In this document: piece by piece, positions 1 to 24,074 of the stretch
How the letters are laid out: each line of letters begins with the position of its first letter
How positions within the stretch are numbered: position 1 is the stretch's first letter
Source: Marchantia polymorpha subsp. ruderalis
Taxonomy: Eukaryota; Streptophyta; Marchantiopsida; Marchantiales; Marchantiaceae
Length of the DNA stretch: 64,000 nt
Reading direction: 5' to 3'
NCBI GenBank assembly: GCA_037833965.1
Contig: AP031351.1
Span: 31,446,501 to 31,510,500 of the forward strand
Program-made: the position numbers and the translations under genes
Notes under the pieces: generated by a model
What the model was told of the DNA's origin: nothing
What the model saw: only the letters and a program-made list of their open reading frames with translations
Database searches by the model: none

Positions 1-659
1 CGGAGTAGATTGGTTGTAGTAACGTTGAGAAGCAATTATGCAAGGAAGATAGTGACAATTTAGACAGTTGCCCATCTTTTCACACTTTGAATAGTTCTTG
101 ACTCTATCTTGTGGAGTGAGTCATGTAGCAGTCAAGGAGCTGGCCGAGTAGTCTTCAAAAGCTTACAGAGAGGTTTTTATTCAAATTTCCCCTCTTGGAT
201 GCAGTAAGATACAAGATTTAGATATCGAGTGAAAGAGAGTGGAACAAAATTTGTTCATGATATTAGTCATGATAGTTTACAAAAGATTACTTTGCTGAAC
301 TTGTCACTTTGTTCAGACACTTCCACCAGACGTGAGTTGCTGTGGGATATTCAACTATGATTTTTGCAGGTTAGATTATCACTATAATGTTGTAGTGATA
401 AACGGTAGTAGAAGATTTTACTTGGAGTTTACAAAGGTGGAGCCTTTTGTGAGGTGGGCTTTATACAGGTCTTACAGTTCCTTTCAGTTTTACTATGGTG
501 AATATACATCAGTGATTACTTACAGTAAAAAGTTTCCCGATGCTCATGTAAAACTTTGTGATAGTTTATAGTTAAACTATTTCTAGTTCCCACTTTAGCG
601 ATTTGGTTTTCAGATACTCTGTGAACGATCCTTGTACACAGTGGAGGTTTGACTTGTGA
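1..659. other. no gene recognised
   Basis: AT-rich sequence with frequent stops in all frames. A 79-codon open stretch at 332-571 on the + strand has no recognisable motif. It may be the upstream part of the retroelement remnant that ends near 1972. Confidence 0.4.
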
Positions 660-1022
660 AGAGACAATGCCGCTTGGAGACAAAGTGGGAGACAGTTTAC
701 CAGAAATTCAAACAGTGGAGGTCGTCAGCAGCGAGGAACGAGATCAAGAGCAGGAGGTGACGGTGCAGCCTCAAGTAGAAGAGAATCCGGTAAACACATT
801 TGTGGTAGAAACAAAAATTCTGGGTTAGATTGGGAGGAGGCACTAGCCGTAGAAAAACTTCTAGAGGAATCTGGCCTAGAGTACAGGATATGTGAGGATG
901 AGTTACTCGACCTTCCAAAGGATATTGCTGAACATTTGAGAGATCTTCAGTATGTTCAAGATTTTCTGTCAGAAGAAATTCTTGTACTAGAGAAATTTCT
1001 TGATAGTCTTAAAAAGGATTGA
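660..1022 (+). pseudogene. C-terminal fragment of an unrecognised ORF, probably retroelement-derived
   Basis: One frame is open from just after a TGA at 657 to a TGA at 1020, about 120 codons with no clear start. The first half is rich in Arg, Ser, Gly and Asn, like a nucleic-acid-binding Gag tail. The second half is acidic and leucine-rich (EEALAVEKLLEESGLEY, then LSEEILVLEKFLDSL) and probably helical. A purine tract and a candidate LTR start 165 bases downstream, which suggests a retroelement coding end. No family motif was recognised, so the function is unknown. Confidence 0.3.
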
Positions 1023-1176
1023 AAGCGAATACCTGTAGCTTGTAGAACGAAGGTACTGAAGGGATTGGGAGTTTGCACCCGGTCTCACTACTTGTAAACT
1101 TGATGTTTTGAAAGCATTGTAAATATATATATATGACGTAGTCAATATATTGAGCTTTCAGTGTGTAGTGTGTTTG

Positions 1177-1187
1177 TTGAGGGGGAG
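1177..1187 (+). other. candidate polypurine tract
   Basis: The sequence TTGAGGGGGAG sits immediately before TGTGACC. This arrangement is typical of the polypurine tract and 3' LTR border of plant Ty1/copia elements. Confidence 0.45.
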
Positions 1188-1972
1188 TGTGACCCTTGTG
1201 TGAAGGAGAAAAAAAAGAAGGAGAAAAAAAAAAAGAAGAAAAAAAAAGAAAAAAAAGGAAGTTTTCAAACAATTATTGTTTGCAATTTGATGGAAGAGGG
1301 CATCGTAGGCGATGCAGGCCCAAGTTGATGGCAGGCGATGGAGATCGAATCGGGATCGCAAAGCGATGCGATGTACCATGTGTGTTGTCTTGTTTTGTGT
1401 TGTGTTTACTTTAGACTGGAGAGTCGTTGCTAGCTGTTTGTTTGTGTTTGGATCATCTCTAGTCTTGCTTCTTGATGCGCGCCCGTGTAGGGGTGACGCT
1501 GATTTTTGGAGTAGTTTTACTCCTGTGTGCTGTCGATAAGGGGCTGGACTTGATCACCGGCCGACCTATCTATGTTTCTCTCACGGTGAGATTGGAGTGA
1601 TGACCAATAGACCGTGAGAGTCTTCTTGCTGTTATGACAGGTTAGGTTGCCCATACCCCTTAGTTAGTAGGGCTAGAGTAGCTAAGTGCGACATGACGTC
1701 AGGTGCCCATAGGGTTATTCGGTGGAGATCTGGCAGTGGTGCCACTTGAGGTTTCATCATCACGGAGCAGTCTAGTGGTCATGTTGAGGACCGCGGTGGA
1801 TTTACGTGGAGTGGTTTGAGGTATCGGCTACCTTAACCTATCTAGCCAGTTGTTGCGGAGGAGGACCATAGTGTTGCAGACTCACAATGTCTTCGGTGGT
1901 GATATCGTCCAGTGTTCCAACCCCATTGATTTGGGACATGGACGGGATGTACGGGGTCGTTGTGGTAACACA
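1188..1972 (+). repeat. candidate solo or 3' LTR (about 785 bp)
   Basis: It starts TGTGAC directly after the purine tract and a plausible end is GGTAACACA at 1972, giving TG...CA termini. It contains a long A/G tract (about 1200-1262). No second copy is in the window to prove the borders, so the end coordinate is tentative. Confidence 0.35.
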
Positions 1973-3318
1973 CTTTTTGTTTTTTTTGCAGAATTTAAAC
2001 AATTTTAGAAAACTAGTACCAAAGCAGTGTTTGTAGCTAGAGAAGGGTACGCTAAATAGAGTGGATTGATGAGATCGTCACGAGGGCACAAAGAATCACG
2101 TAGTCGGATGTACCAACGCCAACGTCTTCGGCGCCTTCGGCAAAAGCTCCTTTTCTGAGGTGTCTCTACTCACGCGCCTCCAGCGTATAAGGAAGCTACG
2201 TTTCCGGCGCAGACACCTCAGGAGGAGGTTTTGCTAAAGACGTCAGGAGAAGGGCCCGGACCTCTAAAGGCATCCGACCATGAGTGCGCCTTCGGCGGAG
2301 CGCCGCTAGCGCGGAAAGGGAAACCTTCATAACAATCGGGACACACGGTAGATCCAGTTGGTTGAAGTTGCATTAGAAAGAGCTCGGGACGCTCGTTCTA
2401 ACGAGTCCAAGAGCGTCGGAGATGGATCAGGAATGGAGAAGTTATGAGCGTCGGAAAACTCGTAGCCGGACATGCGCCGTTCGCGCTAGGGTTCACAGCC
2501 GGAAAGGATTCCCGTACGCCCTCGGCGATGCGCCTTCGGCGGAATCACGCGCTCATAGGAGGAAACCAACTGAGAGTCGGAAGCGCCTTTGGCGGCTGTT
2601 CATGGAAGGAAAGCGCCGGTCGGATGTACGCCTCCGACGTGGCGCTGACGGCCGGATGCGCTGGCATGAGTTGCGCTGACGGATATGCGCCGGCAGCAAC
2701 GGACGAGGCATAAAGGACAAAATAGGCGGTACGACTGCGCGCCGGCGTAATTCGCTCCGACTGGATGTGCGCCCCCAGCAAGGCGTCGACGGATAATGAA
2801 CGCACCAGCGGCGACACGCCTCCGGTGAGGGACGGGTTAGGAAAAGACAACAGGGCCGACGTATACCCTGCAGCGGACTCGAGTCCGGAAGGTGGCGGCG
2901 GCGGGAGAATTCAACGTTTAAGCATGCGAATGCGCGCAGTGCGGAGACGTGAATTCGCGCATGCAAAGGGCGAACCGTTAAGCCGTATAGCCGGCTGCGT
3001 ACGTTGCAACCAGTAAGAACGTTGGACGTTCTTGAAATCGGAGAAGAAAAGACTGCGCTCCAGTCTCATTCTCTCATTCTTGACTTTGCGATTTCCAGTT
3101 TCCAAGATTACGCGCAAGGGCGGAGCGACCTGCAGTGAGAGTAGAGAGTGCGGAGACGAGTTGCGCAAGGATCTTGGCGGACCTTGAAAGAATTGTGAGT
3201 AGCGATCTTGAACGAGCGCAGAGAGAGTGAGCAGTCAGTGCTTGAGTGGCCGACGCGCAGTGGCGATTGTGAGAGAGCGAGCGAAAGGGAGAACGATTGT
3301 GTGTGTGCAGGCAACGCA
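1973..3318. other. GC-rich, gene-poor leader region upstream of ORF copy A
   Basis: No protein was recognised. The stretch is much more GC-rich than the host DNA to the right. The short motif GCGCCTTCGGC recurs near 2130, 2286 and 2527, with a variant near 2582 and a related GCCTTCGGCGG inside copy A (about 4676). Several overlapping frames are open for 60-140 codons on both strands, as expected for GC-rich sequence with few stops rather than coding. The last 300 bases are probably the transcribed leader of copy A. A pyrimidine/TG-rich stretch ending in CAG at 3308-3310, just before the ATG at 3319, could be a splice acceptor. Confidence 0.4.
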
Positions 3319-5874
3319 ATGTCGAAGGTTCCCCAGCTGCGAGTGTCTCCACTCAGGGTGCCGCAGATCGGTCTACGCGCATTTCAAGATGTGCTGCTGA
3401 GGCTGAAGCTCGATTTTCTCCTATGGGGGTGGAACTGGACATGTCCGGAGATGGTGCGCGAGTATCTGCAGGAGAGACACAAGCCTTCTCGCGGATTCCG
3501 CCCACACCCAGAGAGATGGGACATTTGCAATTGGGCGCAGGTGTTGGGCAGGTGTGCCGGCGAGGAAGGGGATCTCCTCTTCGAGGCCGATAGCGTGAAG
3601 GTGTCCCAGGAGGAAGAAGTCTCTTACAATGAGCTCTTCAAAGTTGCCAGACATCCCAAGAACGGTTTCCGGACACGGGATTACAAGGATCGATTGCGGA
3701 GAAATGTCGCGACGGCATTGCTGCAGATATTGCAGCCGACCAAGACCGCTTACATGCATGGTTGGCAGGTAGAGTTTGTGGAGCTAGTGTTGTCAGGAGC
3801 TCCAGTGCATTGGGCACGGCTCCTGTGGAAGGTGACGCGCCAACATGCGCAAGAAGAGAAGGGAGGAACCCTCAATCATCTATCGCCTTACTTAATCGTG
3901 TTTTACCGGGCCATGGGATGTTTGACAAATGCTGAGAAAACACGGTTTCCACAGCTGACCCGGACTTATCCAGGTAGATATTCAAGGGAGGCCGAAGTAG
4001 ACACGGATCCGGACGAGGAACCTGCTAGTACGCCTCCGGCTCCGGCTCCAGCAAGAGCAGCAGAAGAACGTCGAAGTGAGCGCATTCCGCGAAAGCGGAA
4101 GTGGGATGAGAGACCTGAGGACAGGCAGCCGGAAGTGCCAGCTGCGCCGACTCGTGGTCGGCCCACCCCCGAGCCTCACAGTCGACCAAAACAGAGGGCA
4201 CGCAAAATGCCAACTGTTACTGAGGAGACCGGGCGAACTCCGACCCGGCGGAATCTCACACAGGAAGAGATAATCGCTCAGATCCTAGGGAAGACGGCAG
4301 ATACCTCTGCACAGAAGGCACCACGGCCTTCGGGAGGAGATGGACGGACTGACAGTCGGCCGACTGCGAGTCGGATGACTGAAGGCCGACAAGCGGAAGG
4401 AAGGCCAACTGAACGGCGCGTTGAACCGGACAGCAGGCCGGAAGCAGAAGAGAGTTTGGCTGACGAGCCAACAATCCTCAGAGGGTCGTCTTCGGCGGAA
4501 GGCACTTCCGGAAGAACGCCACCAGCAAGCAGGCCAAGTGGAGTCAAGACGCGCAGGGTGTATCCGACTTCCAGTCGGACAACTGCTGGTCGGCCGACTG
4601 CGAGTCGGACAACAGAGAGTCAGCCGGATCCGCCGACTGCGAGACGGACGGGGCCAACGACCAGTGTGCGGACGCCTTCGGCGGACGCACCTTCAGCAAG
4701 GACACCTTCCGCGCAGATTGCGCCGGAAGGACAGGCAGCAGAAGCGGGCGGTTCAAGAGTGACAAAAGTCACTGCGGCGTCGACCCCTTCACAAACCGAA
4801 GATCGAGCCGGAACAGGGGCTCAAGCAGTGGGATCTCCCACTGCCCTGGATATTTTAGCAGGCAGTGGAGCAGCAGTCGCAGCGGAAGCTGCTGCGCGCC
4901 ACAGTTCCAGGGAGTCGCCAAGGGATTCGGTGGCGACTGAAATCCTCGAGACTGAGGATGATACGAGCTCGGAAGAGCAGGAAGCGGATTCGGTGCAGAA
5001 AACGCCAACAGGGGTGCTGTGCGAACAGATAGTTCCACTCCTGCGATATCTGGATCGCAAGACATCCAAATACGCAAGTGCCTTAAAACCGCAGTCTTAT
5101 GTGGAGACTATCAGGCGAAGGACGAGGAGCAAGGTGGCAAAGTGGGCCTCTAGTTGCCAAGTATATGTGGATAGGAACACCGCCCTCCGACAACACCTGG
5201 CGGTCACCCAGAAGCTATACCAAGCCTTGCAGCAGCAGAAGGAGGATGCGGCGACGAAAAGTCAGGCGGATGCCGAACTAATACGGGCAAAGATCGAGTC
5301 GGAATTGCAGGAGGAACGGAGACAGAACCAAGTCCTAGCAGCCGAGCTTGCGCGCCAGACGCGCGCCTTAGAAGAAAGTCAAAGAGCCCGCAAGGAGGAT
5401 GAGGAGTTGTTGTGCAACTTGCAATCCGAGTGCTCGGATTTGAGGGCACAACGTGCGGGATTAGAAATGCAGCTGGCCGAGGTGGAGAGCAGCTGCAGGG
5501 CGCGAGGAGAGTTGGCGGCACAGGTGACTCGTTGTCTAAAAGGATACGCCCATTGGGAGGTGGCAGCTCAAGAGAGGATTACACTCCGGGAGTTCGAGCT
5601 TCGGGCGGCGGCGTTGACGGAGGGTGACAGTCGGAGTCGGCGGCGAGTGGCGAGAAAATTAGAAACCTTCTTGTAGGGTGCGCGCGACACTATGGCGCAC
5701 TTGCAGTCGGAAGTCACCACAGCGCTCCGACGCCTGGGGTTACGCAGCCGGTCGGAAGACTGGCAAGGTAGAGATAGTAAGCGGAGCAGTCCGGCGCGCA
5801 GGAGGCGCAGCACCGGATCTGCTGAGTGCAGTAGAATAGTTTGGTTTCGCGCAGATGCTGCGAGTGGTAGATAG
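3319..5874 (+). CDS. retroelement-associated coiled-coil ORF, copy A (in-frame TAG at 5674)
   Basis: This is the best-preserved copy of an unassigned protein family found four times here. I place the start at ATG 3319 because it aligns with the starts of copies B-D; the frame is open further upstream. Residues 1 to about 215 form a conserved globular part (LDFLLWGWNW, CAGEEGDLLFE, GWQVEFVELV, LSPYLIVFYRAMG). Residues 216 to about 560 are disordered, rich in Arg, Pro, Ser and Thr, with repeated GRPT/SRTTE-like units. Near residue 571 a second conserved block begins (VPLLRYLDRKTSKY), followed by about 150 residues of charged heptad-like coiled coil. A TAG at 5674 ends a frame of 785 codons, but the same frame reopens and runs to 5874, and its ALRRLGLRS matches VLRRLGVDV near the end of copies B and D. 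So the ancestral protein had about 850 residues. An LTR follows. Function unknown; its position resembles that of env-like or extra 3' ORFs of plant gypsy elements. Confidence 0.7.
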
Positions 5875-5931
5875 GATAGCGTAGTGCTAGTTAGGATTCT
5901 TTTGAGAGTATAAAGTAGATCAAGGCGTTTT

Positions 5932-5941
5932 GCCTGGGGAC
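5932..5941 (+). other. degenerate polypurine tract of copy A element
   Basis: GCCTGGGGA precedes the LTR and aligns in position with CCTTGGGGGG before the LTRs of copies B and D. The preceding sequence (GAGTATAAAG) also aligns with GTGAATAAAGAG of those copies. Confidence 0.4.
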
Positions 5942-5945
5942 TCTT

Positions 5946-6830
5946 CCAGTTTCGGAAGTGCAGATCAGGAACTCACTTTCTTGGCGTGTTTGTGCATTTT
6001 GGTCCTGGCACCACGTAGAGAAGCTGCAGCATAGCGAAGTTACCGTATGTTGTAGTTGAAGGCCTTCGGCTGAATGTTCAGAGCTGGCACCCGGTTAGAG
6101 ACTTGAGTAGTGCGGATCTGCACCTGCGGGTGATTTCTGATGCTCAGAGCCGGCTGCGAGTTAGATACTTGAACAGTTCCCCCTTACTCCTTCGAGTGAC
6201 ATATCCTGATTGTACTCCTACGGGAAGTTTCCCCTGAATGCCAATGTGAAGTTTCATTACTTCGTGTAAACCTTGGTTTGTAATTCAGGTTGTGTGTGTG
6301 TTACTGGATCGTGTTTTCAGTAAGTTCTCAGTCGGGTCTGCACTCCCTGCGTTTGGTGTGATAGTCGAGGGTGACGTCCACGGCGTATGTAGAGGCTTCG
6401 TTCCGAAGTGGGAAGTCCAGTCCGGGTAGCCCCGCTAGTTCCTGGCGGAAGGGCAGTAAAAGCCGGAGTGGGAGGCACTACCTGCAGAACCTCTGAGTGA
6501 ACTTGTGAGACACTTTCCTCCTGAAATCCGAAGCGGAGGTCCTGACCGACCTCCGAGTTGTGCTTTTTGCCAGTTTCAGGTGTGTGTGTGTGCGTTGAGT
6601 GACCAAGCTGTACCGTGCATCCTCCGAGCATCCTCCGAGTTGAGATCCTCCTCCGAGTCGAGCCTCCGAGTCGAGCACTGCAGTATTTCTGGGAGTGACA
6701 GTCGCCTAGAATTCAAACTCTACAAAAGTCTGTTAAACGTGACACTTTTACTCTGTGTGTTGCCTCTGTCCCTGTGGGTTCGATCTTTGTACCATCATAC
6801 TGCAGTTTTAGCCTTTGGTGGGTTATTACA
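5946..6830 (+). repeat. 3' LTR of copy A element (about 885 bp)
   Basis: The 3' border at 6830 is firm: its last 60 bases (CCTGTGGGTTCGATC... to GGTTATTACA) align with the ends of the LTRs at 14259-14757 and 24091-24587. An internal block (GGGAAGTTTCCCCTGAA near 6220) also matches those LTRs (GGGAAGTTTTCCCCCTGAA). The 5' border is uncertain, because no clean TG start follows the purine tract. It is longer than the roughly 500 bp sister LTRs, so it is a diverged subfamily or holds insertions. Confidence 0.6.
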
Positions 6831-8266
6831 GTCGTGAAGGGCTCTCGACGGTACTCCGGTGCAGTGGGCACCATCGAGCTTGATGATTTTATTCAGGAGT
6901 TCGACACGTGGTGTGATATGCAATTTCTGCGTAACCCCACGTTGTTTACACCCTTCTTTGCATGGAAGGGGTTATTCCAGCATTTGGAGGGGCCTCCCAT
7001 GGACGATTATCATGAGTTTGGGAGAGATTATGCTGCAGAGATTGATGCATGGAGACGCCATTGGTCTCTGAACTACTTATCCATTACCTAGGGTGGGGTG
7101 GGTACGAGTGGAGGTGCGAGTATCGGCATCAGTGGAGGTGCGAGTAGAAGCATCAGCAAGGGTACCAATGGAGCAATTGGCGCAACTGGTACCAATATCA
7201 GCAGCGGTACTGTTAGCATTGCTGGTGGCAGCACGAGTGGATATGCTAATGGCGTACCTTTGTTTAGCCCCATTCCAGAAGTTGAGGAAGAATTATCATG
7301 GGGTGAAGACGAAGAAGTTGAGAAGTCCCCAAGAGTTCGAGCGGAAGACTGGTGAGAGTCTTTGTGAGGCATACACTCGTACACGACGTCTGATCTTCGT
7401 TACTCACGGTGTGACTGAGGCACAAGCTGTCGAGTATTGGTATCGGATTCTGGACAGAGAGTTGCGAAGGAGAGTTCGTGATGCTACTCTTATGAGCGAC
7501 TCATCACCCACATTAGCCCATGTTTTTACTCTTTCTGAGAAGATTGAGCTGAACATGGTGGAGGAGAGGGTGATGACGTCTACATTTGCGAGGCACACGA
7601 CCACTACTTCGCGTATCCCACACATTACATCACAGTCTCGCCCCATGGGTGGTGGTGGTGGGAGTCGTGGAGTTCATACACGACATCCTTCAAGTCACAG
7701 AGAGCCTAGCGCGCGACCACCACTACCTTCATTTTCTGGCCAGCCACAAGGACCGTCATGTTGGACATGCGGAGGTGGTCACATGAGGAAGGATTGTCCC
7801 CCAGGAGAGAGAGGGACAAACTTCACAAGCTAGGCCACAGCCGGCACAGGTGACCTGTGATCATTGTCATCGACCAGGTCACCCTCGAAAGCGTTGTTTT
7901 GACCTTCATCCTGAGTTGCGATCTGGAGGTAGAGGTCGTGACGGTGATGCTTCACGAGGCCGAATTGGTCGAGGTGGCAGAGGCGGTAGAGGTATAGGTG
8001 CCATTGAGCGTACCACAGCTTGTGTTACTTCAGCCACAGAGAGCGCTATGGCTGCCCGGATTGAGCAGTTGGAGCAGAGACTTGCTTCTATGGCTGGTTT
8101 GGGGGCGAGCACTTCCACATCTTACGAGGGAAAGGATTTTTTTTGTTTGGCTAGTGCAGCACAGGTTGAGGCATCAGTTGCAGTGACCAGAGGTGGTGCT
8201 CGCACTTCAGAGCCACGTGGTGCAACTGTGGAGTTGGACCCTCAAAGGGATGAGCGTGGACGTTAG
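6831..8266 (+). pseudogene. Gag polyprotein, broken
   Basis: The first segment (to a TAG at 7089) reads as a helical Gag N-terminus (ELDDFIQEFDTWCDMQF, then AEIDAWRRHW). A Gly/Ser-rich linker follows in the same frame. A frameshift near 7300 moves the reading to another frame (SLCEAYTRTRRLIF, EYWYRILDRELRRRVRDA), which resembles the Ty3/gypsy Retrotrans_gag fold. A first knuckle, CWTCGGGHMRKDC (7770-7808), is one residue short of the normal C-x2-C-x4-H-x4-C. A second, CDHCHRPGHPRKRC (7856-7897), is perfect but in a third frame. It is followed by RGG-like repeats (GRGGRGGRG) that could bind RNA. At least two frameshifts and one stop make it non-functional. Family assignment rests on layout and knuckles. 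Confidence 0.65.
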
Positions 8267-8513: not shown

Positions 8514-9137
8514 GTGAGCGTGGGAGAGTCACTGCTACGAGTGCCGAGATACGTAAGGACAAGGTTGAGGAGCCATCCTCAACGTCTACATTGTTTGAGG
8601 AGACGATTTGGCAGGCGGCAGCGGCAAAGGATGGAGTCCTTACTAGCTCGACCAGCCATTGATCGTGAGACAATTGTCCCTGGTGTGTGTATGGTGGACA
8701 ACCGGGGTGGCTTATTTCGCTTAGTGAGCTCTACCAGATAGGTGTATGTCCGAGCCAGAGTTTTGCTGGATTCTTGTGCACATCCCTTGATGTTGGGCAA
8801 GGCTGCATGCATTAGTTTGGGTATTCGGAGGTCAGAGTTGAAACCTTGCCCATTCCAGATCCTGACTTCACTTGGTGGCGCCAGCGATAGGTCTTATTTT
8901 ATGACCAGGAAGAGCATATCGGTGTAGTTGAGGCATGATCATGCTCATGATAGCTCGCAGTGTGGAGTTCGTGCGGTGGTTACATCAGCAGAGTCATATG
9001 ATGTGCTTGTTGGTGGAGCTGTGTTATATCCGATGGGTTTTCGGATGGACTATTGGACGGAGACTACTGCCTATCGTCCTGGTTGGCAGTCTGGCGATGG
9101 ACGTTTGAGCAAGCTGCCAGTGAGATTTATTTCTTGA
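8514..9137 (+). pseudogene. retropepsin-like aspartic protease domain, broken
   Basis: One frame, interrupted by TAG at 8739, TAG at 8925 and TGA at 9135. The sequence RARVLLDSCAHPLMLGK has the shape of a retropepsin active site (hydrophobic, D-S/T-G-A). The third residue is Cys instead of Gly, which one G-to-T change would give. Further on, SYDVLVGGAVLYPMGFRMDYW matches the usual retropepsin end, where a hydrophobic-hydrophobic-Gly block is followed by an inactive-state loop; only part of this is quoted as a motif (YDVLVG). Protease between Gag and the next enzyme is the expected gypsy order. Inactive as it stands. Confidence 0.5.
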
Positions 9138-9194: not shown

Positions 9195-10490
9195 GTGCTT
9201 ACTTGGCCTGATGACTTGTTAGAGGGGAACATGTCAACCGACGATACTCCTGTCTATGAGGACGTGGAGGAGATTGTGAGCCTCGCAGTGGCAGTGTCAT
9301 CATCTTTGGATGTTCCACTGTGGAGTTCTTGGCAGGTTTTACAGTTGGAGGCTAATAGGTTGGTGAAGAAGGCTTGGAGTGAAGCCTCTTTACCAGCAGA
9401 GCGAGAGAGTGCTTCAGCTGATCGGCTAGTTGGTGGTTCTAGCGCATTGTCTCCATTGGTTACTACACCTATTGCATGGGAGTATTCCCCAGAGGGTGTT
9501 TGTTTACTGGATCTTTTTGGTGGGATCAGCACTGGTTTGGCTGCAGTGTTGCCGTAAGGTATTCTCGTACGGAGATACTGGTATGTGGAGAAGGACGAGA
9601 CTGCACGTCGAGTTTCTTCACAACATGTTGCACAGTTGATGCAGCAATTTCCTTCGTTGTTGCCGCGATCAGTTGTTCGAGGATATAAGAAGGCGTTACC
9701 TTCAGACATTTCGTTGCTGGGGGCGCCAGACCTTGACCGCGTTGGCCATATTGATAGGGTGATTGCGGGCTGGCCATGTCAGGGACACACACGCACTAAA
9801 CATGGGACAGGGTTGCATGATCCAAGATCTCGAATGTTTTGGAAGATGATGCGAGTGTTACGCCATCTCTAGGTGCAGCAGACACGTTCCCCAACATACA
9901 TTATGGAGAACGTACCATTGTTGGATGACACGCGGGCTCAGTTGCTAGCGAGTGTCCATCAGGTCCGAGCATGGATTGGTTCAGTAGTATTGTTGGATGC
10001 TGCGAGAGTTGGATCCCGTGCTCATCGTGCACGTTTATGGTGGACTAACCTTTTGCCACGAGAGATATTGCGTCATGCCTATGATTCTGTGCAGCGGGAT
10101 CCTACACTCACCGTTGACAGTATCTTGGATGTTTCCCGACACTCTCAGGTGGTGAGAGTTACTGATAGGTCACCTATGGCATTGGTGAACCGCGTAGGTC
10201 AGCCTAAGATGGCTTTACCTACATTTGTCAATTATCCGGCATCACATGCATATCGTGATGGTGGACCTGGAGTACTGTGGGACAGTACAGTACATTAGTT
10301 GATGGAGCCCAACGTTGATGAGAGAGAGCGTGCGATGGGATTTATGATTGGTGTAACCGTAGGTGCTACAGTTTCAGAGGCTTCGCGTCGTTAGGTTTTG
10401 AGTCAAGCTATGGACTTGAACTGCTTGACTTGGATTGTGAGCTTGGGTTTGGCGGAGCAACGCCGTTTGCGAGTTGATTTGGTGGTTAGT
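9195..10490 (+). pseudogene. retroelement-borne C5-cytosine DNA methyltransferase, broken by stops
   Basis: All catalytic blocks of a cytosine-5 DNA methyltransferase are visible in one frame and in canonical order. Motif I, the AdoMet loop, is LLDLFGGISTGLAAVL (about 9501-9550). Motif II is WYVEKDETARR (about 9575). Motif IV, VIAGWPCQGHT, has its catalytic Cys codon at 9777. Motif VI, YIMENVPLLD, has the ENV codons at 9906-9914. Motif VIII is SRAHRARLWWTN (about 10020), and motifs IX/X are DERERAMGF and SQAMDLNCLTWIV. The order I-IV-VI-VIII-X is unpermuted, so it is not the rearranged DRM type. The block RAHRARLWW and the SRMFW helix resemble the DNMT3-like branch. Stops at 9555 (TAA), 9870 (TAG), 10296 (TAG) and 10392 (TAG) break it. 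A spacer of about 90 residues separates it from the protease. The intact enzyme would act on element or host DNA in the nucleus, or on cDNA in particles; that is inference. Confidence 0.85.
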
Positions 10491-10499
10491 ACACCAAAT

Positions 10500-11735
10500 C
10501 AGTGTTAGTCTGGCAATTTCATGCAACGCGGTGTGGTTGTTGGTTGCATTATCCACGTTGAACTTTCCGACTAGGTGATGGATCTCGAAGTCATCGAGTG
10601 TAACCCAAAAGTGCTCGGCCTGGTTAATTCCCGAATGGGCATCTCGAAAACGATGGAACGATAGCAAGGCCGTATGCAGCACTGCTTCTGAATCAATCCA
10701 GTGTGCCACGATTGCCTAGTAGGCGTGACGGTTCGGTCCACTCCACATATCGAAGCTAAAGTGATCCTTGACCTCCGCCTGCCTTAGAGTCTCTTTAACC
10801 TTGTCCTTCATCTCTGTGTATAACGCCACGATGTATCGCTGAACTGTATCACCACTAAGCGGTAATGTTTCTTCGATTGCCGTGAAGTTTGGCTTGCATG
10901 CCGCCAAGTATTTTAATAGCCTTCGAAAGGACTCAGTCTCGCAACAGCGGAAGCTTCAAATAATTTTTGAAGAGAGGATTTTTGAAGAGAGTATAAGCTT
11001 CCGCTTTGTTTCTTCCGCTTTGTTTCTTCAAAAATCCATCGTGCAAAACAAAGCTGAAAGATATCCGCATTGAACTCAAGACTAGGTAGCTGCTGGCCGA
11101 AGGCAGCCTGGATTGTTTGTTGATGCTGCGGGGGTTCGCCTTCGTTGATTGACTGCCCATCCGAACCAACCTTATGGACCTTTTGAAGATGTTCGAGAGC
11201 GTTCTTCGTTGTGGACACTGCAAAGTGGACCGCGGTTTTTGGATTGGGGCATCTATTGCATCGCCATCTTGATCGTCCTTGAACGGTAATCTCACACCCG
11301 TTGATAGGACGCCAGATAATACTCTTCCGTGCCTTCTTCTTGCCCACAAACATATCCGGAATGGATGTGTTGTTCGTCTCATGGTCCCCGGCTTCGGCTG
11401 GATTGCTGCCGACAGTCGGAGGAAGAAGTCCGCTTGGAACAGACGAAAGCGCTGAGGAGCGTGACGATCCCGCTGATCTGTGGGCAACTTGGGCTATCCT
11501 CTGCCATTTGGAAGGGAGCGGTCGGATGCAACTGGTTGGGGGAGAGTATGGCGGCGTGAGAAAAGGGCAGCCTGAGGAGAGATGCCAGGCGTACGCTTTG
11601 CGGAGGAACCGGCAGAGTGTTGTGGTGAATTGTGAGGAAGCGGCAGGTGTTGCAATGAATTGAAGAGAGGGGGGGAGTTTGCCAGAGCCTGAGCGACAGG
11701 TGGAAGAAGAAGAATGCTCTAGAATCACCGCTCAA
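10500..11735 (-). pseudogene. hAT-superfamily transposase (zf-BED) fragment
   Basis: On the - strand an N-terminal BED-type zinc finger is seen around 11180-11340: aromatic residues, RWRCNRC, then ALEHLQKVH supplying the His pair. After a frameshift near 10910, the hAT catalytic region reads DHFSFDMWSGPNRHAY, then AHWID, DAHSGINQAEHFW and KFNVDNATNN; the last holds a catalytic Asp of the DDE core. A TAG splits this part at about 10713. The reading stops near 10500, so the C-terminal dimerisation domain is missing. Terminal inverted repeats and target duplications could not be fixed. The fragment lies between the methyltransferase element (+) and a gag on the same - strand. Confidence 0.7.
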
Positions 11736-11939
11736 ATTTTGTCTACGCTACAATCTCTCAACCCATCGACCCTTCGACCCTCCAACGCGCCTCAAAAAAC
11801 CACAGTCGACCGCAGTCGAACTGGATCACGGCGCTTCCAGACTGGATTGCACAATTCTACGCTAGTCCATCAAACCTGCCGACTAGACTGGACTACGCAA
11901 TCCGTCTAGTCCAGTTTGTAGTCCTGGACGGACCGTGGG
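11736..11939. other. junction between hAT fragment and gag remnant
   Basis: No coding similarity. It contains the near-repeats CTAGACTGGACTACGCAATCC and GTCTAGTCCAG, which could be the remains of transposon ends. No confident inverted repeat with the other edge near 10500 was found. Confidence 0.25.
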
Positions 11940-14178
11940 GAACACTGGTCGTCTTGCGACGAAGTCCGAAGTTCTTTGGCCGATTTATCCTTCTTCGCCG
12001 AAGACTCCTTCTTCACCGAAGACTCTGAAGTCTTCGGGGGAGCCCCTTACTTTGGCTCTCGTGACTCCGTCTCCTTTGAGTCCTTCTTTTTGGCACCCTT
12101 CTTGTCACACTTCGCCTTCTCCGAAGTGGTCTCCTTCTTCTGAGTGGCGCTTCGGGTTTCCACCCGCCCAACCATAGTCTCTTCGTCCGGCCATCAATTT
12201 TCATCGTCTTGTTCCTCCGAACTTAGTTCTACTTGGTTGACTTGCGCGTCCTCCTTCTGCGGCGGTGTGACGAATCGCACTTGTTGTCTTGCCACTCGAG
12301 ATTGATTACATTCTACTGTAGTATGCCCTTGCTGCCGGCAATTACTGCATAGAGGGATATAACCTCTTGGCTTTCGAGGATGCGGACAATTAGGAGCAAA
12401 ATGCCCGACATCGCCACAGTTGAAACAAGCGTTCGGAGGAGGTGGGCCTGCTGTAGCAGGCGGTGCCAATCTTCGTTGTGGCACCGTAGTAGCCACCTCC
12501 TTGGGCACAAAACGTGTTATATGAGCGGGCTGGATGGGGGTTGTCGGAGGCCCTTCCTGTACGGCATAAGCAACTTCTTCTGGGGCTTCTGTGTAATATC
12601 CCCCCGCTTCCCATGTGGGTACCCATTCTATTGCATTGACTGGGTATGTCCGGCATTCGACGTTCGCGTGGCCTACTCTGCCACAATTTGTACACTAGAG
12701 GTTGGGCCTTGCCCCAGTGAGGAACTTCCTCTTGTCTCGGCTCCCTACAACATGAACCTTCAAGTCAGCGAAGTCCTTTACTAAGGCATCCACCTTAGAT
12801 ACTATAGAGGTGGTGCCTTTCTCGGGGGCGGCCATCCGCCGGTTCTTTTTCTTACTTTCTTTCTTCGGCTTCCTCTCGTCCTCAGAAGAGGATGAGTCTT
12901 CTGATTCGCTCGACTCTGAGGATGCAAACGACTCACTGGACGAAGGTGAAGCAGCCCGTCTCTTCCGCCGACTGCTTTTAGATTTTCGCTCGTCTGGTAC
13001 CCGGCCTTTTGGACGCTTGTTTAGGGTAGATGTCTCAAAGGCCTCGGCGGAGGTAATCACCTCGTCAATAGTATCACACCTACAGCGTCGGCAGTAGGTC
13101 TCCATTTCCATTGGCAAGCCCGTTACATACCAATCGATGGCTTGTTGAGTGGAATAAGGCACTCCTTCTCCAATTTTTGGGATGCGATCCAGGAGATCTT
13201 AAAATCTCTCAGTATAGTCTCTCAGGTTTTCCTTGCGCTCCCTATGTAGGTTTCGCAACTTTGTCAACACTCGACTATCATATCCCAGTTCCCGGAACCT
13301 CTTCAAGAACTTCTCTCGGAGTTTAGCCCACGTGTCAATTCCCGTGGGAATCGTGCTCTTGTGGTTGTACCAACTTCGGGCTTTCTTCCGAAGCACGCTG
13401 GGGAAAATTGGCAATCTATCCGCTTCATTGTCTTCCTTATTGGTGATGGAGACCGACTCAAATAATTTGATGTATGCGTATGCATCGTCATTTCCTCTAC
13501 CCTTATATTTGGGGTAGGAGTGTTTAGTAAAGGGTTGACGATTTCCTTGCTGATCTCCCATCGATCGATCTGGTGGACCCCCGCCTCCGCCTCCTCCGCC
13601 ACCTGGTGGGTTTGGTGGTCCTCCTCTCTGCGAGCCTGGTGGAGATGGGGATTCTCCACCACTGCTTCCACCTCTTGAAGTGCCTCCGGAAGATCTTACA
13701 GAATTCGAATCCCTGAATAAGGTCGTGGGCCGAACAGGTGATGTCGACTGTTAGCAAAAAGATCTTTGTAGTTCTGCACCACAGTCTGCACTCGAGCCGT
13801 GTCTTCGGTTGGTAAATCCAACAGCATATGGAAGACTCTGGCGTCATCCGGTATGCCGAAGAGTGGTAAAGAGTACAATTGAGGTGAAGTTGGATCTTCT
13901 ACAGCCGTCAACTCATCAAGGGGTAAGAGGTGTGCATCGATCGGAATTGATGCCAACTTCTTCCGGACGTAGGCTTCGTGCGTAGATGGGAAATTCGCAG
14001 GTCGCCTCGTTTGCGGGGGTGCAATCACAGGCAGAAGGGGAATTGGTCTCTTCCCTTTCCCCTTTCCTTTCCTTTGATCCCGTTCTTGTGGATCTTCGGG
14101 ATCTTCCTTCTTTTCTTCTCGACGGAGATATCGCGCAGATCGATCGCTTACCTTCTTGAAATCATCTCTCGTCGACAT
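11940..14178 (-). pseudogene. Ty3/gypsy Gag with three zinc knuckles, broken
   Basis: It starts 49 bases downstream of the primer binding site (ATG at 14178). A 160-codon N-terminal part is basic (KGKGKGKR). After a frameshift near 13680, the Retrotrans_gag core reads ARSWYNHK, TWAKLREKFLKRFREL and LRNLHRERKENLRDY (13199-13561). It continues through SerGlu-rich sequence to three C-x2-C-x4-H-x4-C knuckles: CTNCGRVGHANVEC (about 12680), CFNCGDVGHFAPNC (about 12420) and CSNCRQQGHTTVEC (about 12340). A lysine-rich tail continues to about 11940. Stops at about 13199, 12695 and 12194 break it. The TAG just before the first knuckle fits CAG to TAG. It differs clearly from the Gag at 6831-8266. Protease and the rest of pol are absent. 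Confidence 0.75.
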
Positions 14179-14225
14179 TCATCGTGCATTGCTGCACACA
14201 CAACTTCTGTGTTTGACGCTCTATC

Positions 14226-14243
14226 TCCGGCAGCGGCGCCAAA
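14226..14243 (-). other. primer binding site, tRNA-Asp type
   Basis: On the - strand the sequence TGGCGCCGCTGCCGGAGAT follows the LTR by about 16 bases. It differs at only two or three bases from the complement of the 3' end of plant cytosolic tRNA-Asp. Tat/Athila-type gypsy elements commonly prime with this tRNA. Confidence 0.7.
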
Positions 14244-14258
14244 AGAAAAATTTATCTT

Positions 14259-14757
14259 TGTAATGACAGATAAATACCAAAATGGAGCATAATGATATAG
14301 ATCCGATCCCACGAGGATAGAAACAAACACAAAAGTCACGATTTGTCACCAGATAGCATTCTATTACGAAGTATTACTTCTTAAGCCAATGTTACTCCCA
14401 GAAGACACTACTCAGCTAGAGCCAAAGACTCACAGGGTAGTGCAAAACCGTATTCACAACCTGAACCTTTTCCAATCAAAACCTGTGAGAATCGAAAGCG
14501 ATCCCACACTTATATTTCAGGAGGAAAACTTCCCAGCACTGCATACATCTCAACACACTGACCCATAAACTCAGACCTGAACTTGCTTAAATCCCGCAGT
14601 AATCCCAGGCTATCCAAGACATCCAAGCTGAATACTCACAACTCCCGATGCGGTAACTTCGACCACCAGGAGCGCCCTATGCTCAATGCCTGGATCACAC
14701 ACCAGCACATAGACACACAGCGAAGACAAAATGACAGTTGAGACAAGCCAATAGACA
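14259..14757 (-). repeat. LTR (499 bp), TGTC...TACA
   Basis: On the - strand it begins TGTCTATTGGCTTGTC and ends TCTGTCATTACA. It aligns over its length with the + strand LTR at 24091-24587. It is followed by a primer binding site and gag, as a 5' LTR would be, and preceded by a purine tract and ORF copy B, as a 3' LTR would be. So one LTR serves both sides. Confidence 0.85.
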
Positions 14758-14773
14758 GAAAAACCCCCCAAGG
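14758..14773 (-). other. polypurine tract
   Basis: On the - strand CCTTGGGGGGTTTTTC ends at the LTR start. The same tract, CCTTGGGGGGGCTTTTG, precedes the LTR of copy D at 24075-24090. Confidence 0.65.
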
Positions 14774-14795
14774 AAAGAGCCTTGGGCCTCTTTAT

Positions 14796-17300
14796 TCACA
14801 ATGGCAAATCTGGAATATCAACCGCTTGAGGCGAATCGGCCTCAGGGACTGTGCCGTCTGATGTAACGGTTACAGCATCATCTGAACTACTCTCTACTCC
14901 TAATCTACGCAACACGTTTACAATCTCTACTTCTACATTCTGGCGCGCCTCATTCAATTCCTCTGAAAATGAATTAACTAACTCTACAATCTGTTTGTGC
15001 CCTACGGATCCGCTGGTCTTCGCGCTCATCAGCCGTCGCTCGAGTAGATCTAGCTTCAACCACTTCACCGAATCCAATCCCTACATCGCGAACCCGTTCA
15101 GGCACTTCTCTAACCGCAATCTCAACACGTCGGTTGAATCCTTCCGCAGCTGACGGTAGGCATCCTCTTCCTTTTCCATTCTCCTTTGCGACTCTTCCGA
15201 TCTCATCTCCGCCTTCCCTAACTGCTCTCGTAACCGTCGACAGTCAGATTCAACCTTTAATCTACATTCGACCTGCGAAGACTTGGCCGACTCGCAATCT
15301 GCCAATTTCTTGGCCCAATCCACTAACTCCTCATCATGCTTCTGGTTTCCCGCCGACAGACTTGCTGATAGCTCCTCCGCACGTCGGAATTCCATCTCAT
15401 ACTTCGCTTCAATCCCCGAGATTTTCCTACGAAGATCTTCCTCCGCCGTCTTTGTATCTGCGAGTTTGCCCTGAAGTTCTTCAGCGATACGAGCTTCTTC
15501 GGCTCTACGGGCTTCCAACTTAGCAAGTTCCTCGATGTGCATCTTCTCTCGCTTCTCCGCAGTAATGATCAGCCGCTCCGGTCTTTTACTTGCCGCCTCG
15601 TAAGCTTCCCTGGATTTCTCCAGTCTCGCTACCAAATCCACTATTACTTTCTGGACATTCTCATTGGAGATACGAAGTCCTCTACAGGCCTCCTCCATCT
15701 CTGCACAACGCCCGGATTCCTTCTATAGATTCTGCTGCAGTACTTTGCACTCATTTTCCTTCTTCCGAAGCTGGGCTTCTCGCTCTCGCACCAATGCAGT
15801 TGCGGACTCCCACTCCCTCTTTACTGCAACTGCTCTCTTGAGCTTTGTCCTATTCCTAATCATTGGTACATAGAATCCTGGCTCCTCTGTTATAGCATAC
15901 TTTCCTCTCTTCCCGTCCAAGTACTTCAACAATGGAACTACACTATCCTACACATTTCCTGAATTTAGAATTCATGAAATGTAATTTCTAATGTCTTCAC
16001 ATCTTCGCCCGAAGTCTTCTCTCCTTCTTCGGGTCTCACCTCTTTCACCGGAGATGTCGGCAGTGTAATGCACTCGGCTTCTATCACCGTCCCTCCTACC
16101 CTTGCGACAACCTGCTCCAGAATCTCATCGCTCAAAGTAAACTCCTTCTCTAGGTCCTCGTTCATCTTCATCTGTGATGTCCCTTCGCCTTGCGCAGACC
16201 GTGTCCGCTCCGAAGATAGAGAAATCGGACTTACCAATTCCGTTTCCTCCTTCAAAGGTTCTGCCGATATATGTGCCGGAACTTCGATTGACACCTCCGA
16301 AGGTACTCTGATCTCCACAGGTCGCATTACCTCGCTAGCTACGACTTTGGATGTGTCAATCGAAGTCAATAATTAAAATCAACAATTGGTGCCACCGTCT
16401 TCTCCACACTGCTATTTGACACCTCAACTGTCACCATCCTCTGTTTCGCCTTCTTCTTTGGTCTTGCGCGAGCTCTGTGCTGTCTGGCTCCACTTACATC
16501 CATATCCATCCTCCTTACCACGTGGGCCAATTCCTCCTCGTCATCACTCACGACCTTCCTTCTCTTTGTCAATCGTCTCTCTCGCTGCTCCTGCCTTTGA
16601 ACCACGTCCACCTGCACTGGTCCTCGAGCGGTTGTGTGTGTTGGAATTGACTCAGCCGTCAGGATTTCCCGCTCTCTCGAAAATCGTTTCTCTTCCTCCC
16701 TCGTAAGCAATCCCATCCCTCGATAGAAATTCACCAAAAAGGGAGTGATGTGATTGGTCAAAGGTCCCGTCCACCGGGAGCCGGCATTCACCCAGACAAG
16801 ATCATGGAAGATCCTTGCTCAATATACGCGCTGTCTCTTCAAAATGCGTTCAAAGAATCCTACTTGTCAGGCCGTCACATAAGTCGTGCGCACCGGCCGT
16901 AAGATGTGCATGATCCCTAACGCGATCGCCCTTCTCTTCGGAGCTTTGTAATTAACAGTCTTCCAATCTCGAAGAGAGGCCCGTAAGAGAATTCCTCGCC
17001 GCGCGTAAGTCCTACGCTATTCTTCTCAAATAGCAGATCTCCTTCGCTGCCCGCACAGGGTCCCAGTACCATCGTCCAATGTTCGATAGTCCACAGCATG
17101 GGATTACCGCGGAGCTCCTCGCCTTCGACCGTGCTCTTGTCCATAACTTCCTTGCTGATACTCGCTGAGACTCAATTCCAATTCCACAAAAGGAATTCAA
17201 GCCGCAGTTCCCTCAACTCGTGTCTGAAAGGTCTCAATCCCTCGTAAGGCATCTTCAAGGGAATCAATTTCCTCAACTTTCCACTCTTTTTGGGCGCCAT
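14796..17300 (-). pseudogene. retroelement-associated coiled-coil ORF, copy B
   Basis: ATG at 17300 opens MAPKKSGKLRK. The conserved N-terminus (LEFLLWNWN, MLWTIEHW, CAGSEGDLLFE) runs to about 16730, interrupted by a frameshift near 17172 and stops near 16880-16920. The middle (16366-16791) carries a basic nuclear-localisation-like run, RRLTKRRK, and an acidic DDEEE-like stretch. The C-terminal part (15965-14796) is a long Glu/Lys/Arg coiled coil (EAYEAASKRPERL, KLEARRAEEARIAEEL). It ends LPL-stop at 14796. Copies B and D share their last residues (SPQAVDI, LPL) and an AATAAA motif overlapping the stop. The polypurine tract and LTR follow directly. Confidence 0.8.
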
Positions 17301-17655
17301 GTCTTCAATTTGCGTTTCGCTTATCGCGGGTTGGCTCGATTGCAATTCCTCTCTCTCTCTCGCTCGTTCTTGCTTGATATAGCAATGTCGGCGCAAAGTC
17401 TCCTCGTATTGTCTTTACCTTTGAAGCCCTAACATTGCCTTCTCCCGCGCCTCGTAGAACTCTCGATGCGTGCGAGCATTGTCCGGCCCGTTGCATGATT
17501 TGAAATTGATTCCGATGTCTTCGCCGAAGACGCAGCTCTTTGTACGTCCTTGAAAGACTGCACCGAAGACGAATTCTAACTAATCCTATCATAACTCCTA
17601 TAAATCTACTCTTTCCAACTCACATACCTATCTTCTACACAAATATGTTTATGTT
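17301..17655 (-). other. conserved 5' leader of copy B
   Basis: Untranslated sequence that aligns with the leader of copy D (21057-21448), for instance GGAGTTATGATAGGATTAG and GGCAATGTTAGGGCTTCAA. It includes the palindrome GTCTTCGGCGAAGAC. A poly-A tract (17669-17685) lies just beyond it. Conservation of a roughly 350-base leader implies it was part of the mobile unit. Confidence 0.5.
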
Positions 17656-17705
17656 TTTGTTAATTTAAAAAAAAAAAAAAAAAGTAGGCCCCACAGTGGG
17701 TGAGA

Positions 17706-18210
17706 GTATGTTCTTAGCATGCAGAGCTCTTTCGGAGAGTTATGCCTGCAGCGTTTGATGAATCTTGCGATTGTTCAACATAGAGAAACGTTGCGATATG
17801 CAACCATTCGGGAAGGAGGTTATTGACCATCGATTCGTAGATTTCATGTGGGAGACTACGTTTATTTACAGCAGACTGCACCGACAGCAGGACGCACAAT
17901 CTTGCGAGTGGGGGAGGTGTTACCTTCTGGAGTTCTCCTGTTAGAGGGTCGTGACGGCGTTGTTTGGAAGGATCATGTGCGCAATTGTGCGCCATGCCAC
18001 CTCCCAAACGTAGATGGCACTATGGACCCAAGCTTAGCAATAGTACGTGTTGGCTTGAGGTGCATGCTGTGTGGATCAGCTGGTCAGGCGGCCCGTATGT
18101 TTGTGTGTGATATGTGCTCTAGGGGATGGCACATGTCGTGCCTAACTCCGCCTATCGATGTTATTCTGGTTGGACGATGGGTTTGTCCTCGATGTACTTC
18201 AGAGTGGTAG
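17706..18210 (+). pseudogene. integrase C-terminus fused to a PHD finger
   Basis: The reading frame runs from LQRLMNLAIVQHRETLRYA through one TGA at 17824 into RRFHVGDYVYLQQ. This is the usual end of gypsy integrase: a helix, then the basic SH3-like barrel opening F-x-V-G-D-x-V. About 70 residues later comes a perfect C4HC3 PHD finger: CMLC (18061-18072), VCDMC (Cys codons about 18106 and 18115), GWHMSC (His at 18130, Cys at 18139) and CPRC (18184-18195), then stop at 18208. PHD fingers usually read histone H3 tails, so this one could guide integration to particular chromatin, as chromodomains do in chromoviruses; that role is inference. A purine tract and LTR follow, as expected at the 3' end of pol. 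The upstream pol part is missing. Confidence 0.75.
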
Positions 18211-18362
18211 ATGACTTGATCTTCACATGTTATGAATTGCAGAAAGGCGACTAACGATGGAGCGACATAGCACCCGGCCTACTGGTTTGCGCACCCATGA
18301 AGGTGTATAGCATGTAGTTGTAGATAGGGCTACCTGGGAGTCAGGGGAACCTGACTGCCAGC

Positions 18363-18375
18363 TAGGGGGGGGCGA
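18363..18375 (+). other. polypurine tract
   Basis: GCTAGGGGGGGGCGAG directly precedes the repeat that starts TTGTGACATTC, about 150 bases after the end of the PHD-finger ORF. Confidence 0.6.
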
Positions 18376-19028
18376 GTTGTGACATTCGAGTGTGTACTCT
18401 CTCGCGCCTTATATGTGTGTATGTGTGCGTATGTGTATGTGAGTATCATGTCAGCGATGTAGGATGTATGGCGATACGTCTTCGCACGACAGCTGTCATG
18501 TAGTTTTTGGTTTTGCTAAAAATAGCGTCGAGCTTAGGGTTTCAGGTCGTAGGGTATAGGTCGGAGACGGCTCGAAGAACGTTAGTTCTTCAAGTCGAGC
18601 CTAGCGCGTTGGAAGTAGTGCCCGTGAGCGTCAGACCTGGAGCCTCAGAGTGTGGAGTGGGTTGGGCTTCACTATGTTTGTGACGGTGACCGTGACGGTT
18701 TTGCCAGTAGGGTAAACGACCGACGGGAATTCTAGTGGGGAATCTCCCGTTTATTTCAGTTGTGACATTCGAGTGTGTACTGTCTCGCGCCTTATATGTG
18801 TGTATGTGTGCGTATGTGTATGTGAGTATCATGTCAGCGATGTAAGATGTATGGCGATACGTCTTCGCACGACAGCTGTCATGTAGTTTTTGGTTTTGCT
18901 AAAAATAGCGTCGAGCTTAGGGTTTCAGGTCGTAGGGTATAGGTCGGAGACGGTGTGTGTGTATGTGTATGTGTATGTGAGTATCATGTCAGTGATGTAG
19001 GATGTATGGCGATACGTCTTCGCACGAC
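18376..19028 (+). repeat. tandem, partly overlapping LTR copies
   Basis: Copy 1 starts TGTGACATTCGAG near 18377 and runs about 380 bases. Copy 2 starts with the same bases near 18760 and is nearly identical to copy 1 for about 200 bases. A third partial copy (about 18955-19028) repeats the TGTGTATG microsatellite and GCGATACGTCTTCGCACGACA. The last one joins directly to the leader of ORF copy C. The repeat unit follows a purine tract, so it is read as the LTR of the integrase-PHD element, multiplied by recombination or slippage. Confidence 0.6.
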
Positions 19029-19158
19029 AAGGGCAGCGAGGGTAAGGGCAGAAAGAGGAGCATTCTCGCCGACATTGCGATATTGAGCGAGAATAAATGA
19101 GAGTGAGAGAAGGCGTAATGGATCTAACTTGCTAGCAGCGAAGACGCAAATTGAAAAT
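19029..19158 (+). other. truncated leader of copy C
   Basis: Aligns with the last 130 bases of the copy D leader (GCCGACATTGCGATAT, CTTGCTAGCAGCGAAGACGC). Its upstream part is replaced by the LTR fragment ending at 19028. Confidence 0.5.
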
Positions 19159-24051: not shown

Positions 24052-24074
24052 ATAAAGAGACTCAATGCTCTTTC

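What the first reader, a model, noticed from the sequence alone, without database searches (positions are those of the whole stretch)
9195..10490. LTR retrotransposon carrying its own C5-cytosine DNA methyltransferase
Seen: motifs I (LLDLFGGISTG), IV (GWPCQGHT), VI (YIMENVP), VIII (SRAHRARLWW) and IX/X lie in order in one frame, directly after a Gag with zinc knuckles and a retropepsin-like domain. Known: from memory, retroelement-borne methyltransferases were reported in dinoflagellates and in a charophyte alga. Inference: a related or separate capture exists in this plant lineage, and the element may have methylated its own DNA. The unpermuted order argues against capture of a DRM gene.
Basis: partly seen in the sequence, partly recalled or inferred. 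Interest (0 to 1): 0.92.

Follow-up and report, generated by a model that had tools for sequence, protein, structure and literature searches.

The report
Liverwort jumping gene carrying DNA methyltransferase
A high-copy, recently active jumping gene in a Marchantia-like liverwort genome carries its own DNA-methylating enzyme and, in two copies examined closely, pieces of the plant's own genes, although papers I could read place such elements in algae and not in land plants.

Summary
Window 9438-10475 encodes an unpermuted DNMT3-type C5-cytosine methyltransferase (MT) between a Gag/protease and, in other copies, reverse transcriptase, RNase H, DDE integrase and a PHD finger. The window copy is dead: four in-frame stops in the MT frame, three frameshift-size indels, RT lost, two large insertions. 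The family is not: of 143 MT places taken as element copies, 27 lie in an uninterrupted 1348-1365-aa Gag-PR-MT frame. Of five copies with both ends found, four have 4-bp target duplications. Closest proteins are from Marchantia polymorpha; relatives occur in Sphagnum, Closterium, Klebsormidium and unnamed metagenomes, and RT and MT trees place them together. It extends the published Klebsormidium KnitGypsy-Dnmt3 lineage; a separate capture is unlikely. Features I found no report of: a UAG-CAA-CCA after the MT (TAG at 84 of 86 sites shown), a Tf1-like self-primer, a PHD finger, split repeats whose PPT and joints fit integration from a two-LTR circle, and a hypervariable region before gag that holds host sequence in two of the six copies examined, spliced cDNA in one. 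Self-methylation of the element's DNA is inferred, not shown.

The parts
1..1333 (+). Region before gag: copy-specific 5' part (about 1-450) and a leader (about 451-1331) shared by many copies
   Evidence: 1-1332 matches one other place at 92%; 451-1331 or parts of it (three times 273-1331) match the other scored places at 82-88%
1334..1956 (+). 5' part of the element body (start of the Gag region)
   Evidence: 91.2% over 623 columns to another copy
1961..6830 (.). Nested insertion with TG...CA ends inside the element; GTCGT on both sides (1956-1960, 6831-6835); holds an 825-aa frame of unknown kind
   Evidence: junction read from the sequence; no terminal repeats of 60 nt or more were listed
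6836..8266 (+). Gag, frameshifted; Retrotrans_gag-like stretch 7273-7443, CCHC knuckle 7759-7797
   Evidence: in another copy Retrotrans_gag E 0.015, below cut-off
8769..9038 (+). Retropepsin-like protease (DSGAQ ... LVGGVVLYPMG in the other copy)
   Evidence: RVP_2 only weak in the other copy (E 0.19)
9438..10475 (+). DNMT3-type C5-cytosine methyltransferase domain, unpermuted, with in-frame stops
10497..17695 (.). Foreign DNA that replaces RT, RNase H and most of the integrase
   Evidence: the other copy jumps from 8097 to 10902 here
17696..18201 (+). Integrase tail and PHD finger (PHD 18034-18201)
   Evidence: (PHD E 5.6e-10)
18360..18376 (+). Polypurine tract (AGCTAGGGGGGGGCGAG) just before repeat B1
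18377..18491 (+). Repeat B1; B|A junction palindrome GACAGCTGTC at 18488-18497
18494..18758 (+). Repeat A2, with TATA-like box and primer sequence (one mismatch) at 18584
18759..18874 (+). Repeat B2, joined directly to the end of A2 (A.B joint)
18877..19029 (+). Further partial A (18877-18952) and B (18953-19029)

Best explanation
A dead copy of a high-copy, recently active Gypsy-type retrotransposon of a Marchantia-like liverwort. SHOWN: family layout A-PBS-variable region-Gag-PR-MT-UAG-RT-RH-IN-PHD-PPT-B-A.B; MT of DNMT3 type, under constraint like RT and IN between subfamilies; shared ancestry with the MT elements of charophyte algae. INFERRED MECHANISM: transcription starts about 30 nt after a TATA-like box; the first 12 nt of the RNA fold back on the site just after repeat A and prime reverse transcription. 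Gag-PR-MT is the main product; leaky reading of UAG-CAA-CCA gives some RT-RH-IN-PHD, so the MT is made at Gag level and enters the particle. There it methylates cytosines of the new DNA before or during integration, so new copies arrive already marked; this could spare the host or stop early DNA being sensed as foreign. The cDNA (B-A-...-B-A) closes into a two-LTR circle which the DDE integrase opens at the B|A palindrome and inserts with a 4-bp duplication. The PHD finger tethers the integrase to H3 tails. Template switching onto packaged host mRNAs fills the region after the PBS.
Against: No expression, methylation or protein data. CpG observed/expected of nine bodies (0.68-0.74) is only slightly under that of window 24001-64000 (0.81), and C-to-T decay of the window copy is raised at both CG and CHG (9.3%, 11.5% v. 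6.0% CHH), as host silencing would also give. c1 v. c2 shows little or no constraint (dN/dS 1.73 MT, 0.71 RT-RH, 0.97 IN), and recent pairs vary widely (MT 0.14-0.51, IN 0.11-0.84), which I read as decay after insertion. The MT model is poor at 260-300 (target recognition) and at 138-150, beside the catalytic PC (pLDDT under 50). Motif IV reads PCQ, unlike PCN of DNMT3A. c2, the fifth copy with both ends found, shows no matching TSD. One TAA and one CAG stand at the UAG site.
Confidence: 0.8

Rival explanations
1. A host methyltransferase gene or retrocopy landed once in an old retrotransposon; the element does not use it.
For: The window copy alone could look so: one decayed MT beside Gag.
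Against: In the eight joined copies compared with c3 the MT lies in one piece with the body before it, and in c5 a small rearrangement follows just behind it; relatives from mosses and algae have it in the polyprotein too; constraint between subfamilies is like that of RT and IN.
Confidence: 0.02
2. Independent capture of a DNMT3 gene by a liverwort Gypsy element.
For: Klebsormidium P0076 (with the unnamed P0099) is the first branch of the MT-before-RT side and has a long stem (0.94); no cellular plant DNMT3 was in the trees.
Against: RT tree (49 rows) and MT tree (58 rows) part the two domain orders at about the same place, and Marchantia lies among the MT-before-RT rows with Closterium and Klebsormidium; the split repeats reported for Klebsormidium recur here.
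Confidence: 0.08
3. The MT acts on host chromatin or on rival DNA (viruses, other elements) rather than on its own DNA.
For: A PHD finger is encoded in the same element; PMC6338049 speculates on an antiviral role for such domains (passages read).
Against: MT lies on the Gag side of the UAG, PHD at the far end behind IN, so most MT would be made without the PHD; no direct data.
Confidence: 0.2
4. The hypervariable region before gag is only a fast-changing 5' leader of the element, not captured host sequence.
For: Its last 530-880 bp and, in a set of 21 A1-PBS sites biased by how they were fetched, the first 157-430 bp in 13 of them are shared among copies; no donor was identified for c2, c3 and c7 (40 candidates scored each).
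Against: c4 holds an ENTH-gene cDNA with five introns removed plus pieces of three further loci, one beside a SKP1-family gene; c8 holds 96-98% identical pieces of a 649-aa frame elsewhere.
Confidence: 0.15
5. The A ... B-A.B layout comes from recombination between neighbouring copies, not from integration of circles.
For: The window copy has an extra partial A and B.
Against: Copies at different sites, four with their own 4-bp duplications, end in the same way; the A.B joint is a direct end-to-end join in c1, c2, c8, c9 and the window, has one extra base in c7 and is shortened in c3.
Confidence: 0.2

Closest known systems
KnitGypsy-Dnmt3 of Klebsormidium nitens (de Mendoza et al. 2018, PMC5890265; first two parts of the text and section 9 read)
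   Same: Gypsy domains, unpermuted DNMT3-type MT in the polyprotein, split direct repeats like DIRS, no introns, many copies
   Different: Here a liverwort host, UAG between MT and RT, PHD finger, self-primer, host sequence before gag; whether Klebsormidium copies have these was not tested here
SymbioDIRS-Dnmt3 and SymbioLINE-Dnmt of dinoflagellates (same paper)
   Same: Retroelement-borne C5-MTs; the paper's abstract reports de novo CG methylation by retrotransposon DNMTs
   Different: DIRS with tyrosine recombinase, or LINE; here DDE integrase
Unnamed, probably algal, elements with order RT-RH-MT-IN-PHD
   Same: MT, RT, IN and PHD homologous
   Different: MT lies behind RT; they form the other side of the RT tree
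Tf1 of fission yeast (recalled)
   Same: Start of the RNA complementary to the PBS
   Different: 12-nt match and sequence are this element's own; cleavage untested
Bs1 of maize (review PMC13317346, passages)
   Same: LTR-type element carrying parts of several host genes
   Different: Here copies of one family with intact members carry different inserts between PBS and gag

Membership tests
KnitGypsy-Dnmt3 lineage | Gypsy pol with RT, RNase H, DDE integrase | tested here: met
KnitGypsy-Dnmt3 lineage | DNMT3-type MT with unpermuted motif order inside the polyprotein | tested here: met
   MT before RT in both, but a UAG follows MT here
KnitGypsy-Dnmt3 lineage | Split repeats A-coding-B-A-B | tested here: met
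   against the figure legend
KnitGypsy-Dnmt3 lineage | Common ancestry of RT with Klebsormidium elements | tested here: met
   same side of a branch (98), not sisters; root of the tree not known
KnitGypsy-Dnmt3 lineage | Purifying selection on MT (paper: Ka/Ks < 0.2) | tested here: inconclusive
   0.23-0.29 between subfamilies, decay after insertion included; one pair 1.73
DRM methyltransferases | Permuted motif order | tested here: not met
CMT / MET1 (DNMT1 type) | Closest similarity to DNMT1-type enzymes | tested here: inconclusive
   none named so among 34 PDB sequences at E 0.01, DNMT3 first; no tree with plant enzymes could be built
Standard LTR Gypsy element | Equal LTRs at both ends | tested here: not met
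   left end A only, right end B-A.B
Chromovirus | Chromodomain behind integrase | tested here: not met
   PHD and no chromodomain at E 0.01 in the 375-aa C-terminal piece
DIRS / PAT | Tyrosine recombinase | tested here: not met
   rve integrase, no tyrosine recombinase in the pieces scanned
Tf1-type self-primed elements | 5' end of RNA complementary to PBS | tested here: met
   12 of 12 nt in 6 of 6 copies; RNA start inferred from TATA spacing
Tf1-type self-primed elements | Primer cleaved from its own RNA | not testable with these tools
   needs RNA work
Type I readthrough (UAG CARYYA) | UAG followed by CARYYA | tested here: met
   UAG CAA CCA; motif as in PMC5382211 (passages)
Type I readthrough (UAG CARYYA) | Readthrough product made | not testable with these tools
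   needs a reporter or peptide data

The most novel reading that the evidence does not exclude
A land-plant retroelement whose DDE integrase inserts a two-LTR circle, cut at an internal palindrome, after its own DNMT3-type enzyme has methylated that DNA, and which during reverse transcription regularly picks up host mRNAs between PBS and gag, so that one family works as a genome-wide shuttle of pre-methylated host cDNA.
Probability: 0.3. Interest if true: 0.93.

Novelty: new variant of a known kind. Interest (0 to 1): 0.78.

Why it matters
A paper on the Marchantia methylome counts five host DNA methyltransferases in three classes (PMC5784723, passage), and a 2019 paper states that methylase-coding transposons are not present in land plants such as tracheophytes (PMC6338049, passages). 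Here a Marchantia-like genome has well over a hundred element-borne DNMT3-type copies, 27 of 143 examined with a full Gag-PR-MT frame. In a model plant with easy genetics this makes an open question directly testable: why would a transposon carry the enzyme that marks it for silencing? The repeat layout also offers a possible natural case of integration from circles, and the inserts a case of mRNA capture.

Tried and rejected
Third protein search (profile with a DNMT3A segment): among the 109 proteins listed, those with an organism name are all Klebsormidium; no named cellular DNMT3 came up, so the wished-for tree with DRM, CMT and MET1 was not built. DNMT3A enters as one gappy, long-branched row (46% of columns) and roots nothing reliably. 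Donors of the inserts of c2, c3 and c7 were not identified. A tRNA primer was not tested; ARAGORN finds no tRNA gene in the window. My first reading that all five introns missing from c4's ENTH cDNA are GT-AG was wrong: four fit GT-AG (two without, two with one mismatch in 40), the fifth best fits GT..CG at the genomic locus. Literature: ten searches in open PMC papers only; by the titles and abstract starts listed, and the passages read, none reports an MT-bearing retrotransposon in a liverwort or moss; most subscription papers and bioRxiv preprints are not in that library. PMC12344493 (passages) mentions streptophyte elements only by citing the 2018 paper; PMC9985172 on liverwort transposons has no occurrence of 'methyltransferase'; PMC6453930 passages gave nothing on elements with an MT. 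PMC10952607 was seen as a listing only. The host name rests on protein names; the assembly itself is unnamed.

Full report
WHAT IS IN THE WINDOW. By alignment with another copy the MT domain is 9438-10475. The window copy is in pieces: body 1334-1956 and 6833-10496, then, after 7.2 kb of foreign DNA that replaces RT, RNase H and most of the integrase, the integrase tail, PHD finger and 3' repeats at 17696-19029. A first insertion (1961-6830) has TG...CA ends and GTCGT on both sides. Over 6833-10496 the body differs from c3 by six indels, three of them not multiples of three.

THE FAMILY. One search scored 40 of 381 candidates; the 39 besides the window match its MT at 91-92% over all or nearly all of the query. 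A DNMT3A segment gave 148 matches among 150 scored of 237 candidates. I left out five rows that looked like host exons by identity or reach; the other 143 I take as element copies from their alignment pattern, and 27 of them lie in a stop-free frame of 1348-1365 aa. Nine places were read in full (c1-c9). Layout in c3: A1, PBS, variable region, Gag-PR-MT (1361 aa), UAG, RT-RH-IN-PHD (1042 aa) in the same frame, PPT, B1, A2, B2. Pfam: DNA_methylase, RVT_1, RNase H, rve and PHD are above cut-off; Gag and protease only weak (RT and RNase H scanned in c4).

MOBILITY AND AGE. Both ends were found in five copies; c3, c7, c8 and c9 have 4-bp direct duplications at the start of A1 and the end of B2, c2 does not; c4 and c5 have a left end but no right end in the range searched. 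A1 and A2 differ at 0 of 292 (c3), 0 of 236 (c4), 4, 1 and 1 of 292 (c7, c8, c9) and 11 of 283 sites plus gaps (c2).

RELATIVES. Searches listed 42, 62 and 109 proteins, with overlap: Marchantia polymorpha (best 95%), Sphagnum fallax (52%), Closterium, Klebsormidium nitens, Cymbomonas and many without organism name. Two orders occur, MT-RT-IN(-PHD) and RT-MT-IN-PHD. On an RT tree of 49 rows the order changes once (support 98; 0 of 500 shuffles as low). On an MT tree of 58 rows the RT-before-MT rows with Cymbomonas form one side of a branch (99); deep MT-before-RT branches are less resolved. This fits one old acquisition with one move of the MT, inherited with RT. Trees were the quick kind, without cellular plant enzymes; horizontal transfer was not tested.

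UAG. A pattern spanning the stop, with the stop codon left free and up to two mismatches, has 167 places, reversed control 0; letters were shown for 86, all without mismatch: 84 TAG, one TAA, one CAG. Of nine joined copies eight have TAG at the aligned place; c5 is shifted there. The following CAA CCA fits CARYYA, the type I readthrough context of plant viruses (PMC5382211, passages).

PRIMING AND REPEATS. In 6 of 6 copies A1 holds AGTTCTTCGAGT, and the site right after A is its exact complement; in c3 it starts 30 nt after the first T of a TATA-like box. In 21 A1-PBS sites the primer stretch is exact in 17 and has one change in four. The exact PBS pattern has 147 places, control 0. A polypurine tract lies just before B1, and A ends at the PBS, so by retroviral logic the cDNA is B-A-PBS ... 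PPT-B-A. The integrated form A-PBS ... B-A.B is what a two-LTR circle gives if opened at the B|A palindrome GACAGCTGTC. The A.B joint, which this model makes anew in each cycle, is direct in c1, c2, c8, c9 and the window, has one extra base in c7 and is shortened in c3. This is inference from structure.

HOST SEQUENCE BEFORE GAG. PBS and UAG places (100 of 147 and 81 of 167 typed) form 50 pairs; 39 imply a PBS-gag region of 1.4-4.1 kb, nine 6-13.6 kb (insertions or mispairings) and two are negative (read as truncated). c4's region holds six blocks of an ENTH-domain gene at C7:3.73 Mb joined without the five introns between them (four fit GT-AG, the fifth GT..CG), antisense to the element; a 488-bp piece from the 5' side of a SKP1-family gene; and pieces of two further loci; short shared words such as GGAGG at joints suggest template switching. 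A second genomic place carries the same set at 98-99%. c8's 433-aa frame matches a 649-aa frame at C6:2.73 Mb (98%, 96% and a 75% repetitive piece) and a piece at C9:14.49 Mb (96%, 27 aa); that this locus is a host gene is inferred, and splicing was not shown there. For c2, c3 and c7 no donor was identified; c9 shares c8's first 1.19 kb. So host sequence is shown for two of six copies, spliced cDNA for one.

MECHANISM. Placing MT before a leaky stop implies Gag-level amounts in particles; the 2018 paper's abstract reports de novo CG methylation by retrotransposon DNMTs. I take self-methylation of the new DNA as most likely (about 0.5 by itself), action on host or rival DNA as next. The PHD finger is nearest to CHD4, KMT2D, PHF12, PHF21A, DPF and KDM5 fingers, several of which read H3 unmethylated at K4 (recalled), hence the tether idea.

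NOVELTY. MT-bearing Gypsy elements with split repeats are known from Klebsormidium. New here, as far as ten searches in open papers show, are the land-plant host, the UAG, self-primer, PHD finger, the circle reading of the repeats, and captured host sequence in such an element.

Noticed in passing
14259-17683 and 21038-24587: Two copies of another element family in opposite orientation, 74-92% complementary over twelve blocks.
   Followed up: no
10916-11731 (-): 272-aa frame on the minus strand inside the second insertion, looks like a BED-finger/hAT-type protein by eye; not tested.
   Followed up: no
12194-13750 (-): Frames with several CCHC zinc knuckles by eye, Gag-like, from a different retroelement.
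   Followed up: no
32001-34000, 38001-42000, 54001-56000: AT-rich stretches, GC 0.28-0.32, in a window otherwise 0.40-0.58.
   Followed up: no
P0038 and P0042, C-terminal parts: Relatives seem to carry a second methyltransferase-like stretch behind the PHD finger; seen by eye only.
   Followed up: no
window 6833-10496 v. six copies: C-to-T changes are commoner at CG (31 of 335) and CHG (42 of 366) than at CHH (68 of 1136) sites, a methylation-linked decay pattern.
   Followed up: partly
L021:3125-3502: The shared leader holds a 126-aa frame without Pfam match; its end is shared by c4, c7, c8 and c9.
   Followed up: partly
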